This document shows, piece after piece, positions 18,137 through 21,952 of a stretch of DNA of 64,000 nt (position 1 is its first letter; every line of letters begins with the position of its first letter). Position numbers and translations under genes: made by a program. Origin of the DNA: an uncultured Erythrobacter sp. (lineage in GTDB: Bacteria; Pseudomonadota; Alphaproteobacteria; Sphingomonadales; Sphingomonadaceae); assembly GCA_947488155.1 (NCBI GenBank), contig CANKYK010000001.1:1444439-1508438 (forward strand), in the 5' to 3' direction. The notes beneath the pieces were generated by a model. The model was not told the origin of the DNA and ran no database searches. It saw only the letters and a program-made list of their open reading frames with translations.

Positions 18137-18748
18137 ATGAAAACTGCAATCTTTGCCGCTGTTGCTGTACTAGCGACCAGCACCTCAGCTTTCGCTCAGG
18201 ACGCTGCCGGCTCGACCACTGACGTCGACGTCGACAACGATGTTGTAGTCGTGGACACAGACGTGACGGTTGTTGAAGACAGCTTCGACAACTTCAACGA
18301 CAGCTTCGATGACAATTCGGACAACAACAGCTTCAACGACAACTCAAACCGTGAGTTCAACGATAGCTTTGACGACAACCGCGATTTCGTTGACAGCAAC
18401 AATGACAATTCGGTCAACAGCAGCGACAACTCAGAGCGCACGTTCAATGACAGCTTCGATGACAACTCGGACACCTTCACTGCGAACACCAACTTCAACA
18501 GCAACAATGTCTTCAATGACAATGCGATCGTTGCAGAAGCGACCCTGTCTAACGTTGTAACCGGCGTTGATGTGGACTTTGGCGATGTTGAAGATTCGGC
18601 TCGTTTCGTGAACCGTCTTAGCAACTCAGGCAATGCCTTCCGCAACTATTCAGGCCTGAACGCTCTCAACCAAAACACCGGCGTTGGCGCTTCGCAAAAC
18701 GCGAGCGTTACGATTGCCGTGTCGAGCGAAAACTTCGACGTAAACTAA
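18137..18748 (+). CDS. Secreted Asn/Asp/Ser-rich repeat protein, candidate functional-amyloid subunit (FapB/C-like)
   Basis: Signal peptide MKTAIFAAVAVLATSTSAFAQ. Three FNDSFDDN repeats and C-terminal GLNALNQNTGVGASQNASVTIAV. RBS TAGGAG upstream of 18137. Confidence 0.65.
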   Translation: MKTAIFAAVAVLATSTSAFAQDAAGSTTDVDVDNDVVVVDTDVTVVEDSFDNFNDSFDDNSDNNSFNDNSNREFNDSFDDNRDFVDSNNDNSVNSSDNSERTFNDSFDDNSDTFTANTNFNSNNVFNDNAIVAEATLSNVVTGVDVDFGDVEDSARFVNRLSNSGNAFRNYSGLNALNQNTGVGASQNASVTIAVSSENFDVN

Positions 18749-18753
18749 GTCGC

Positions 18754-18811
18754 TTTCAGGTTTGCTTTGCGCCGCCTGCCCACAGAGGTAGGCTGGCGTA
18801 GGCACCTGAAA
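18754..18811 (+). promoter_or_regulatory. Intergenic stem-loop between the two amyloid-like genes
   Basis: TTTCAGGT (18754-18761) pairs with ACCTGAAA (18804-18811). Nested GCCTGCC (18774-18780) CACAGA GGTAGGC (18787-18793). Confidence 0.6.
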
Positions 18812-18827
18812 ACAAGGAGTTAAAGCT

Positions 18828-19205
18828 ATGACTAAGATTAGCATGGCATTTGCAATGGCTTGCGCTGCTGTAGCCTCTCCGGCACTTGCCGAAGACGCCA
18901 AATCAGCGCCTGCAGAGCAGACTGCGCCTGTGGCAAAGTCAGTGTTTGCTGACGCCACTCCGGTGGATGAGGGCAAGCTGGCGAAAATCGCTGGCCGTGA
19001 AGACCTGACCCAGCTGACCAATTCGGATCAGACGAACAGCGTTGGCGGCAATAGCGTCGGCGACAATTCGAACACGGGTACGATCTCAATCAGCGATAGT
19101 GCCTTTAGCAATCTGAATGGAATAACCATTCTCAATGCCAACACCGGCAACAACGTCGCGATCAACGCCGCTGTTCAAGTAAACATCGCGCTTCCGGCTC
19201 AGTAA
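18828..19205 (+). CDS. Secreted small Asn-rich protein, candidate second amyloid subunit/nucleator (FapB/C-like)
   Basis: Signal peptide MTKISMAFAMACAAVASPALAED. Asn/Ser/Gly-rich NSVGGNSVGDNSNTGTISISDSAFSNLNGITILNANTGNNVAINAAVQVNIALP. Confidence 0.6.
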   Translation: MTKISMAFAMACAAVASPALAEDAKSAPAEQTAPVAKSVFADATPVDEGKLAKIAGREDLTQLTNSDQTNSVGGNSVGDNSNTGTISISDSAFSNLNGITILNANTGNNVAINAAVQVNIALPAQ

Positions 19206-19219
19206 GCTGGGATTGTAAT

Positions 19220-19939
19220 ATGGCATTTGGCGGCGTCTCACGAATGATCACGGCAATGGCAGGGGCAATGCTCCTGCCTGCTTGTGCCGCTGTGCCTGTC
19301 GATGACGGCGGGTTTCAGCTCACAACGCATGCCGGATCGCTGGCGCTGGAAACCGCGCCTCGCAGCATGGTTGAGACCCGCTATGACACGGTTATCCGCC
19401 AGCAATTTGATTTCAGCTGCGGTTCCGCCGCGCTCGCAACGCTGCTGACTTACCATTATGGCCGCGATCAAGGTGAAGGTCTGGTGTTTCGCGGCATGTG
19501 GCGCGATGGTGACCAGGCAGCGATTCAGAAGCAGGGTTTCTCCCTGCTCGACATGAAACGTTACCTTGGCGCTCAGGGAATTGACGCAAATGGCTATAAG
19601 GTCTCGCTTGACCAAGTTCGCCAGGCTGGAACCCCTGGGATCGCGCTGATCGCGCCGGGTGGATACCGCCATTTCGTGGTGGTCAAGGGCATTGAAGACG
19701 GTTTCGTCTTGGTCGGAGATCCCTCGTTGGGGCTGCGCCGGATGGACCGCGAAGAATTCGAAGAAACCTGGAACGGCGTCTATTTTGTTGTGACAGGTGG
19801 AGCAAATATTAACCATCTTGCCTTTAATGCAGACGCGCAATGGGGCCGCGTCGCAGCATTTGGGGCGGACCAGGGCATGTTCCAGCCGGTGAGTCAGCAA
19901 GTTCTGAACCTTACCGCGCCGGGCTACGGGGAATTTTAA
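19220..19939 (+). CDS. C39-family peptidase, FapD-like
   Basis: QQFDFSCGSAALATLLTYHYG (Cys), GFSLLDMKRYLGAQGIDANGYKVSLDQV, GYRHFVVVKGI (His), VGDPSLGLRRM (Asp), WNGVYFVV. Confidence 0.8.
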   Translation: MAFGGVSRMITAMAGAMLLPACAAVPVDDGGFQLTTHAGSLALETAPRSMVETRYDTVIRQQFDFSCGSAALATLLTYHYGRDQGEGLVFRGMWRDGDQAAIQKQGFSLLDMKRYLGAQGIDANGYKVSLDQVRQAGTPGIALIAPGGYRHFVVVKGIEDGFVLVGDPSLGLRRMDREEFEETWNGVYFVVTGGANINHLAFNADAQWGRVAAFGADQGMFQPVSQQVLNLTAPGYGEF

Positions 19940-19941
19940 CG

Positions 19942-20451
19942 ATGCGATTTATTCGCTTTCTTGCTGTGATACTTGCCTTTGTGGCTGCACCTGTCGCTGC
20001 GCAATCGCCATTTGGCGCGGTTGCGGCGATGGATGACGCTGCTTTGGCTGGTGAACGCGGCGGCTTTATTCTTCCCGGTGGCATCGATCTGGACTTGGCC
20101 ATCACCCAGGAAACCAGCATTGATGGAGAGCTCGTATTGCGCTCGTCCTATGTGCTGGCTCAGGGCGGACCCGTTGTATCGATTGAGCAAGTGTCTCAGA
20201 ACGTTTCGGTGGAAGCCGAGGGCGACGATACAGGTAGCCGTATAACCATTTCGGTTCCTCAAACCCAGGTTGTTCACCTGGCAGGCCGGACGACCGGCAG
20301 TATTATCACCAATTCCGCCGATGACCGCACCATTTCGACCGTCACGTCCATTGATCTCGATTTGTCGAGAACGGCTGTTGGTCAAATTGGTTCGCTCATA
20401 CCGTCTCTGGGCGCACTTGCTGAGGATGCAGCAAACTTCAGTTTCGACTGA
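19942..20451 (+). CDS. Small secreted protein of Fap-like locus, function unknown
   Basis: Signal peptide MRFIRFLAVILAFVAAPVAAQ, then AAMDDAALAGERGGFILPGGIDLDLAITQETSIDGELVLRS. Sits between the C39 peptidase and the barrel gene; ATG 3 bp after the previous stop. Confidence 0.6.
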   Translation: MRFIRFLAVILAFVAAPVAAQSPFGAVAAMDDAALAGERGGFILPGGIDLDLAITQETSIDGELVLRSSYVLAQGGPVVSIEQVSQNVSVEAEGDDTGSRITISVPQTQVVHLAGRTTGSIITNSADDRTISTVTSIDLDLSRTAVGQIGSLIPSLGALAEDAANFSFD

Positions 20452-20488
20452 CCTTAGTCGCGACTGTCCGGACGGATGGTAATACACA

Positions 20489-21952
20489 ATGCGCAACGCA
20501 TTTCTGAGCCTCGCTCTTATGGGCGCCGCTTTGCTCGCAGGGCCAGCCGCTGCCCAGAACGCAGGGCAAGGCGCTGGCACTCCGACGCGCGAAATCGAGA
20601 TGGTTTCGCGGCCCGTCGTGCAGCCTGTTGGCACGCGCTCGGCCAAGCCTGCGGCTCAAGTAGCGTCAAATCTGGACATACAGTCTAAAACCCCGACAAA
20701 CGCGGCTGAACTGGCGCAATTGCGCGCTGAAGTGTCAGCTCAACGGGATTCGATCGCGCAGCAGATCAGCGCGCTTCAAGCGCAGCAAAACCAATTGGAC
20801 GCGATGGAGCGACGCTTGGCGCTTGCTCTAGGCGAAGAACCCGTGGTTCGCCGTGCGGCCGTTACACCTTCTCAGGCTCAGCCTGGTGCCGCGCCGCGCC
20901 GTGTTGCCACTGCGGCCCCACAAGGTGCTCAGAACGCGCAAACAGGCGGTTCCCAGGGCCGTCCGCAAGGCGCCGTGGGCGTTGCGCCGGAAGATGCCGA
21001 TCGCCAACCAGAAATTGCCGCGCTGGGCCGTCAGGGCAGCGCTATCACCAAAAAGGGTAAGTTAAGCGGTGAGGTCGAGTGGAGCTATGCCCGCGCTGAC
21101 CGTAACCGTGCACTCTTCCGCGGTGTCGAAGTGGTCGAATCCGTCCTCGTCGGCGTGTTTGATATCAACGAAAGCCGCCAGGACGTGTTTACCCAGAAGG
21201 TCGGCCTGCAATATGGCCTGACCGATGATCTGGAAATTGGCGTCGATGTGCCGTTTATCGCCCGCTGGGACACCTCAGTCCTGACGCCTGTGGCTGGGCC
21301 TGATGCGAATGGCGACACGCGCGAGATTGATAACAGCGCCAGCGGCTATGGCATCGGTGATGTCGAAGTGCTGCTACGCAAGCAATTGCACGCCCCCAAG
21401 GGCTTTGGCGCCTATTTGATTGGCAATCTACAGGTCGACATTCCAACCGGAAGAGGCCCATTCGAACTCAACCGCAACCAATTTGGTGAAGCGAGTGAAG
21501 CGGCGACCGGCTCAGGTTTCTGGGGCGTGACCCCGGGTATTACCGCCATTATCCCAAGTGATCCGGGCGTTTTGTTCGGTAGCTTGAGCTATACCAAGAA
21601 CTTCGCACGTGACGTCAATGCGGTATTGCCGCCAGTGCAGATCGAACGAGTGGATCCCGGTGACGTCATTTCCTTCAGCGCCGGCGTCGGCCTTGCGCTC
21701 AATCCGCGACTGTCGCTTAACTTTGGCTATGCGCACAGCTGGGGCTTTGGAACCGAGACCACAACACGGGCGTTGACCGAAGGTGCGGAATCGGTTACTC
21801 AGAGGTCACGTGATCTCCAGATTGGACGCTTTCTGTTTGGGACAACCTATAAGATCAATCCAAAGACGAGCGTGAATTTCGGGATCGAAGCGGGCCTTAC
21901 CGATGACGCGACCGATATGCGCGCGGTCGTTCGCTTCCCATTCGTATTCTAA
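20489..21952 (+). CDS. FapF-like outer-membrane transporter (N-terminal coiled coil plus beta-barrel)
   Basis: Signal peptide, coiled coil (NAAELAQLRAEVSAQRDSIAQQISALQAQQNQLDAMERRLALAL), linker, then beta-barrel strands (QYGLTDDLEIGVDVPFIARWD...) ending VVRFPFVF. Confidence 0.7.
   Translation: MRNAFLSLALMGAALLAGPAAAQNAGQGAGTPTREIEMVSRPVVQPVGTRSAKPAAQVASNLDIQSKTPTNAAELAQLRAEVSAQRDSIAQQISALQAQQNQLDAMERRLALALGEEPVVRRAAVTPSQAQPGAAPRRVATAAPQGAQNAQTGGSQGRPQGAVGVAPEDADRQPEIAALGRQGSAITKKGKLSGEVEWSYARADRNRALFRGVEVVESVLVGVFDINESRQDVFTQKVGLQYGLTDDLEIGVDVPFIARWDTSVLTPVAGPDANGDTREIDNSASGYGIGDVEVLLRKQLHAPKGFGAYLIGNLQVDIPTGRGPFELNRNQFGEASEAATGSGFWGVTPGITAIIPSDPGVLFGSLSYTKNFARDVNAVLPPVQIERVDPGDVISFSAGVGLALNPRLSLNFGYAHSWGFGTETTTRALTEGAESVTQRSRDLQIGRFLFGTTYKINPKTSVNFGIEAGLTDDATDMRAVVRFPFVF

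What the first reader, a model, noticed from the sequence alone, without database searches (positions are those of the whole stretch)
18137..21952. Fap-like functional amyloid biogenesis locus in an alphaproteobacterial context
Seen in sequence: five consecutive same-strand genes encode two secreted Asn-rich low-complexity proteins, a C39 peptidase (QQFDFSCGSAALATLLTYHYG...GYRHFVVVKGI...VGDP), a small secreted protein, and an OM beta-barrel preceded by a coiled coil. Established knowledge: the Pseudomonas fap operon encodes amyloid subunits FapB/FapC, the C39-like protease FapD and FapF, a beta-barrel pore with an N-terminal coiled-coil plug. The match in part list and order suggests a diverged Fap system. 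As I recall, Fap was described from beta-, gamma- and deltaproteobacteria, so an alphaproteobacterial version with very different subunits could be undescribed.
Basis: partly seen in the sequence, partly recalled or inferred. Interest (0 to 1): 0.85.

Follow-up and report, generated by a model that had tools for sequence, protein, structure and literature searches.

The report
A second, Fap-like fibre secretion operon
This marine Erythrobacter-like bacterium carries, besides an ordinary Fap amyloid operon, a separate five-gene relative that probably exports fibre- or matrix-forming proteins to the cell surface, and the shared leader motif in two of its proteins points to the long-sought target of the Fap protease.

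Summary
The five genes are real and in the stated order. The barrel is a homologue of FapF (PDB FapF E=1e-26; predicted fold matches FapF best) and the C39 protein of FapD. The same order (secreted low-complexity protein P1, small secreted P2, C39, FapE-like P4, barrel) recurs in 48 sphingomonad genomes, and P2-C39-P4 plus a barrel recurs in other Pseudomonadota. The window locus is not that operon. Trees of both proteins place it in a sister clade, apart from canonical Fap and from Fil. Its subunits each end in one repeat unit related to the Fap imperfect repeat, where Fap subunits almost always have three; P1 adds long Asp/Asn/Ser arrays. P4, P2 and canonical FapE share a leader after the signal peptide that resembles the double-glycine leaders cut by C39 peptidases (LxDxELxxxRG[GRK]); in P4 it is nearly textbook. 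That makes the unknown FapD substrate directly testable. Most likely function: C39-licensed export through a FapF-type trimer of a surface fibre. Amyloid formation itself is inferred, not shown.

The parts
18137..18748 (+). P1: secreted low-complexity subunit, 203 aa; signal peptide, DSFDDN/DNS-type acidic Asn-rich arrays (about residues 22-130), one C-terminal Fap-type repeat unit (GLNALNQNTGVGASQNASVTIAVS)
   Evidence: homologues reach 350-540 aa or more in Sphingomonas by array expansion
18828..19205 (+). P2: small secreted protein, 125 aa; signal peptide, leader VDEGKLAKIAGRED, one C-terminal repeat unit (GITILNANTGNNVAINAAVQVNIA) homologous to that of P1
19220..19939 (+). C39 peptidase (FapD homologue), 239 aa, exported (possible lipobox LPAC), no ABC transporter domains; Q61/62, C67, H151, D167
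   Evidence: (NF058616 FapD 147 bits, E 4.5e-43; FilB 119 bits)
19942..20451 (+). P4: FapE-like secreted protein, 169 aa; signal peptide then double-glycine-type leader MDDAALAGERGG followed by FILPGG
   Evidence: NF058559 FapE 19.7 bits; profile-profile with FapE: probability 95, E 1.6e-8
20489..21952 (+). FapF-like outer membrane barrel, 487 aa: signal peptide, coiled coil 71-113, disordered linker 120-172, plug helix 177-183, 12-stranded barrel, PTG motif at 319-321
   Evidence: (NF058560 133.7 bits, E 7.4e-39)
17907..18136 (+). upstream intergenic region, presumed to hold the operon promoter; no sigma-70-type match found there
   Evidence: promoter location is inference

Best explanation
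The locus is a Fap-related secretion operon of a separate branch from canonical Fap. All five products enter the periplasm by Sec signal peptides. The barrel forms a FapF-type trimer with a periplasmic coiled coil and a plug helix. The exported C39 peptidase recognises a double-glycine-type leader at the new N-terminus of P4 (FapE-like) and of P2, cuts after the conserved G-G/G-R step, and so licenses export through the barrel. Outside, P2 (short, one repeat unit) acts as nucleator or cap, and P1 (long, acidic Asp/Asn/Ser arrays plus one repeat unit) is the main surface fibre or matrix protein, its C-terminal units stacking as in FapC. Shown by computation: homology of barrel, C39, FapE-type leader and repeat unit; conserved gene set; separate clade. 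Inferred: cleavage site, order of events, roles of P1/P2, fibre (amyloid) state.
For: Barrel = FapF: NCBIfam FapF E 7.4e-39, PDB FapF by sequence E 9.9e-27 and with the family profile E 1e-58, end to end; AlphaFold model with coiled coil, linker, plug helix and barrel; Foldseek top hits all FapF, E 1e-19, TM by target 0.77-0.84, ahead of COG4313 at 3e-11. C39 = FapD homologue, catalytic residues kept. P4 N-terminus = FapE N-terminus (score 62.5 against 17.4 for the best of 50 column-shuffled decoys). Leader: 16/16 canonical FapE, 59/69 P4 in strict RGG form with several of the rest reading TGK, 60/69 P2 in a looser form. P1/P2 unit against the Fap repeat: score 26.3 against 15.5 for the best of 200 decoys, probability 88; two alphaproteobacterial P1 homologues carry 5-6 units in tandem. 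The order is conserved across Sphingomonadales and the P2-C39-P4-barrel set recurs beyond the class in 13 of 14 loci.
Against: No experiment shows fibres, SDS resistance or export. P1 and P2 have one repeat unit each, while FapB/FapC almost always have three (PMC12822426), so a FapC-like stack may not form in the same way. Position -1 of the leader is R/K in canonical FapE and in sphingomonad P2, not G, which C39 peptidases usually require. The repeat-unit match is short (36 columns, probability 88, not above 95). The C39-FapF pair also serves non-amyloid cargo (Neisseria nap island, PMC11798529). The P2 model was of low confidence and shows no repeat structure.
Confidence: 0.68

Rival explanations
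1. Same export machine, but the product is a hydrated, non-amyloid surface matrix or adhesin: the acidic Asp/Asn/Ser (elsewhere Gly-rich) arrays do the work and the C-terminal unit is only an export or anchoring signal.
For: Arrays vary widely in length and composition between species while the single terminal unit is constant; one unit per protein would suit a secretion signal.
Against: The unit is related to the Fap amyloid repeat and occurs 5-6 times in tandem in two homologues (L120, L123), as a structural repeat would.
Confidence: 0.2
2. A peptide-export system like the Neisseria nap island: C39 peptidase plus FapF-like pore releasing double-glycine peptides that act on other or sister cells.
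For: Nap islands pair a C39 peptidase with a FapF homologue and GG peptides (PMC11798529); P4 and P2 have double-glycine-type leaders.
Against: P1 is long and strongly acidic, not a small cationic peptide; P2/P1 share a Fap-type repeat unit; no immunity gene is seen in the operon.
Confidence: 0.07
3. A hydrophobic-compound uptake channel (COG4313 / Phenol_MetA_deg type) beside unrelated secreted proteins.
For: Pfam labels the barrel Phenol_MetA_deg; COG4313 is the second-best fold.
Against: FapF is a clearly better match by fold and sequence; C39 partners have not been reported in COG4313 operons (PMC6173800), whereas here C39 and FapE-like neighbours are constant.
Confidence: 0.03

Closest known systems
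Canonical Fap system (fapABCDEF; Pseudomonas, also in this genome at G000:C1 about 1742-1749 kb)
   Same: FapF-type barrel with coiled coil, plug and PTG motif; FapD-type exported C39; FapE-type N-terminal leader; Fap-related repeat unit; gene order subunits-C39-FapE-barrel
   Different: One repeat unit per subunit instead of three; long acidic arrays in P1; FapE C-terminal part not alignable; no FapA; separate clade for C39 and barrel
Fil system (NCBIfam FilB/FilC, called a putative pilus system)
   Same: C39 peptidase next to a FapF-family barrel
   Different: Lower scores (FilC 70 against FapF 134 bits); separate clade with 100/100 support
Neisseria nap island (NapP C39, NapF FapF-like, GG peptides)
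   Same: C39 + FapF-like pore with double-glycine cargo (PMC11798529)
   Different: Cargo there are small cationic autolysis peptides; here large acidic repeat proteins; its sequences were not compared here
C39 domains of bacteriocin ABC exporters (PCAT type)
   Same: C39 fold and LSxxELxxIxGG-type leader recognition (general knowledge)
   Different: Here exported, with no ABC transporter
COG4313 channels (Pput2725, PDB 4rl8)
   Same: Related outer membrane barrel fold, second-best Foldseek match
   Different: C39 partners not reported; weaker structural match

Membership tests
Canonical Fap system | FapF: trimeric 12-stranded barrel with N-terminal coiled coil, plug helix, PTG motif | tested here: met
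   (trimer state not tested)
Canonical Fap system | FapD: exported C39 peptidase with catalytic Cys/His/Asp | tested here: met
   signal sequence read by eye; activity not tested
Canonical Fap system | FapB/FapC with three imperfect repeats | tested here: not met
   one unit in P1 and one in P2; FapB/FapC models gave no hit to P1 or P2
Canonical Fap system | FapE homologue | tested here: inconclusive
   N-terminal leader and following strand match (36 columns); the rest does not align
Canonical Fap system | C39 and barrel fall inside the canonical FapD/FapF clades | tested here: not met
   canonical clades 98/96 and 100/99 exclude it; own clade 96/98 and 94/100
Canonical Fap system | Curated NCBIfam cut-offs | tested here: not met
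   133.7 of 700 and 147 of 330 bits; this genome's canonical operon also fails them (349 and 221 bits), so the cut-offs are narrow
Canonical Fap system | SDS-resistant amyloid fibres | not testable with these tools
   needs bench work
Fil system | C39 and barrel in the FilB/FilC clade | tested here: not met
nap island | small cationic double-glycine peptides as cargo | tested here: not met
   P1 203 aa, acidic
nap island | C39 and barrel related most closely to NapP/NapF | not tested
   Neisseria sequences were not fetched
Bacteriocin-type C39 ABC exporter | C39 domain fused to ABC transporter | tested here: not met
   239-aa protein with signal peptide, only a C39 domain

The most novel reading that the evidence does not exclude
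A widespread, undescribed sister of Fap in Pseudomonadota builds surface fibres from subunits with a single amyloid repeat joined to long disordered Asp/Asn/Ser or Gly arrays, and its C39 peptidase (like FapD in true Fap) is gated by a double-glycine leader on the FapE-type protein, a leader earlier work on Fap did not recognise.
Probability: 0.5. Interest if true: 0.78.

Novelty: new variant of a known kind. Interest (0 to 1): 0.62.

Why it matters
The substrate of FapD has been an open question (PMC5557850, PMC6173800), and the three-repeat rule has led reviewers to call Fap 'fixed' (PMC12822426). This branch keeps the export machine but uses one-repeat subunits with long arrays, and repeat-based screens would be expected to miss it. 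Its P4 proteins carry a nearly textbook double-glycine leader at the position where canonical FapE has LxDxELxxxRG[RK][YF], so the cleavage site and gating model can be tested by single substitutions. It also flags mis-named proteins: barrels of this branch are called 'transporter' or even 'acetate kinase' in Pseudoxanthomonas and Lysobacter.

Tried and rejected
Membership in canonical Fap: rejected on repeat number and trees. Recent duplication of the canonical operon: rejected, since the genome's two copies fall in different clades. Fil membership: rejected. Upstream response-regulator/Hpt gene and 325-aa barrel (16165-17906) as part of the system: rejected, seen only next to the two closest relatives L030/L031. 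Sigma-70 promoter and terminator scan gave no more than chance. Structure of P2: low confidence, uninformative. Direct hits of P1/P2 to FapB/FapC models: none; the multi-unit homologue L123 gives only E 0.014 to FapB. A paper search for FilB/FilC found none. Lipobox on C39: present in the window protein, inconsistent across relatives.
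Full report
Observation. The window lies in a 3.2 Mb sphingomonad genome whose nearest named relatives are uncultured Erythrobacter assemblies (95% identity over the barrel). The five genes are present as described. I call them P1 (18137-18748), P2 (18828-19205), C39 (19220-19939), P4 (19942-20451) and the barrel (20489-21952). 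P1 is Asn/Asp/Ser-rich (17.7/15.3/12.8%) with DSFDDN-type arrays; P2 is only mildly Asn-rich.

Identity of the machine. The NCBIfam FapF model matches the barrel at E 7.4e-39 and FapD matches the C39 protein at E 4.5e-43; FilC and FilB come second. The barrel finds FapF in the PDB by sequence (E 9.9e-27), and the family profile aligns to FapF end to end (E 1e-58). The AlphaFold model (mean pLDDT 69.5) has a confident coiled coil at 71-113, a disordered linker, a short helix at 177-183 and a 12-stranded-type barrel. Foldseek ranks FapF first (E 1e-19, TM by target 0.77-0.84), well ahead of COG4313. A PTG motif, noted in FapF (PMC5557850), is invariant in the family at 319-321. The C39 protein keeps Q61/62, C67, H151 and D167 and has no ABC transporter domains.

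A second operon in the same genome. The FapF model finds a better match 277 kb away (345.7 bits). That locus (L003) reads, in order, LuxR-type regulator, 166-aa protein in the FapA position (no family hit), FapB (three repeats by eye), FapC (three repeats), FapD, FapE, a 197-aa extra protein and FapF; FapB to FapF are confirmed by their NCBIfam models. So the organism has an operon in canonical fap order, and the window locus is something else. Fap in Erythrobacter, Porphyrobacter and Novosphingobium was reported in 2018 (PMC6173800), although the 2013 survey had limited Fap to Beta-, Gamma- and Deltaproteobacteria (PMC3792158). The same 2018 paper saw co-located fapD and fapF homologues in five further phyla without describing their cargo in its main text.

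Distribution. A scan of 85,488 species genomes with the barrel alignment returned 50 loci, all from sphingomonads (Erythrobacter, Sphingomonas, Sphingobium, Novosphingobium, Croceibacterium, Pacificimonas, Polymorphobacter and others). In 48 the genes P2, C39, P4 and barrel follow in order on one strand; the other two are cut by contig ends; P1 is recognisable in 46. Among 201 genomes of the family, FapF scores fall in two separate bands: 13 genomes at 320-405 bits (canonical) and 22 at 105-160 bits (window band); two genomes, both in the window's genus, have both (bands were not checked locus by locus). Window-type barrels (280 bits or more with profile A3) also occur outside the class, and 13 of 14 such loci have P2-C39-P4 beside the barrel, sometimes with the barrel on the opposite strand. 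Relatives are named as Pseudoxanthomonas and Lysobacter, where the barrel is annotated 'transporter' or 'acetate kinase'.

Trees. For both C39 and barrel, canonical Fap proteins form one group (98/96 and 100/99), Fil-type proteins another (100/100 both) and window-type proteins of alpha and other classes a third (96/98 and 94/100). The genome's two copies sit in different groups. The window locus is therefore a sister system, not a recent copy.

Cargo. P1 homologues have a signal peptide, long arrays (SDN, DSGN, SNQGND, or Gly-rich outside sphingomonads) and one conserved C-terminal unit; P2 ends in a related unit, so P1 and P2 are related to each other as FapC and FapB are. Profile comparison aligns the unit over 36 columns with the 39-residue Fap repeat (score 26.3, probability 88; best of 200 column-shuffled decoys 15.5; reversed profile 8.7). 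Two alphaproteobacterial P1 homologues carry five and six such units in tandem (L120, L123). Canonical FapB and FapC almost always have three repeats (PMC12822426), so this is a clear difference.

Leader. P4 matches FapE through its N-terminal region (score 62.5 against 17.4 for the best of 50 decoys). There, right after the signal peptide, canonical FapE has [LVI]x[DE]x(E)Lxxx(R)G[RK][YF] in 16 of 16 sequences. P4 has [LVIM]x4[LM]x3RGG in 59 of 69, several of the remainder reading TGK. P2 has a looser form in 60 of 69 (IAGRED in sphingomonads, RGG in many others); its N-terminal profile aligns with FapE and P4 (scores about 32 against at most 10 for decoys; the P2 segments were chosen by the motif, so that score is biased upward). 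From general knowledge, C39 peptidases of bacteriocin exporters read leaders of the form LSxxELxxIxGG. The 2017 FapF paper reports that the FapD cysteine is needed for FapC secretion, that FapE alone lacks its N-terminus in mass spectra, and that Fap proteins lack canonical C39 sequences, leaving the target open (PMC5557850). The window-type P4 proteins make the missing leader visible. That reading is my inference; I found no paper in the library making it.

Mechanism, steps marked. Shown by computation: homology of pore, protease, leader and repeat unit, and their constant linkage. Inferred: Sec export of all five; C39 cleavage of P4 and P2 after the leader; opening of the FapF-type trimer; export of P1 and P2; P2 as nucleator and P1 as fibre body with solvent-exposed acidic arrays. 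Weak points: R or K at position -1 in many leaders, the single repeat unit, and no fibre data.

Comparison and verdict. It works like Fap but fails two defining tests of canonical Fap (three repeats, clade membership). It is not Fil (trees). It shares the C39 + FapF-like pore logic with the Neisseria nap island (PMC11798529), but with very different cargo. I rate it a new variant of a known kind.

Noticed in passing
L003 (G000:C1:1735000-1751000), 7107-13980: Canonical-order fap operon with a LuxR-type regulator upstream and an extra 197-aa protein between fapE and fapF; the extra gene also occurs in L114, L115 and L116, so it may be an alphaproteobacterial Fap component.
   Followed up: partly
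L120 33-1277 and L123 9604-10935: P1 homologues with five and six tandem copies of the unit (e.g. SFNGAAGVVSVTQNNGSGNVISSSISVTASF), a possible link between one-repeat and multi-repeat subunits.
   Followed up: partly
L179 1533-3115 and 4397-5979: The P2-C39-P4 set appears twice in tandem at one locus outside the class.
   Followed up: no
L169-L177, genes upstream of P2: In several other Pseudomonadota the P1 arrays are Gly/Ala-rich (GGAGGAGG) rather than Asp/Asn/Ser-rich, on a related C-terminal unit.
   Followed up: no
P0241, P0246, P0258 and others: FapF-type barrels in Pseudoxanthomonas and Lysobacter are annotated 'acetate kinase', an apparent propagated mis-annotation.
   Followed up: no
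window 1-3954: Likely mobile or defence island edge: tyrosine-recombinase-like gene (2707-3954, -), Abi-like protein (1525-2562, -) overlapping an Rfam abiF RNA match (2485-2520, -), and a methyltransferase-like gene running off the window start. Gene calls are by eye, apart from the Rfam match.
   Followed up: partly
window 16165-17906: Response regulator-Hpt gene followed by a 325-aa outer membrane barrel with weak EpsL similarity, upstream of P1; linked to the operon only in the closest relatives.
   Followed up: partly
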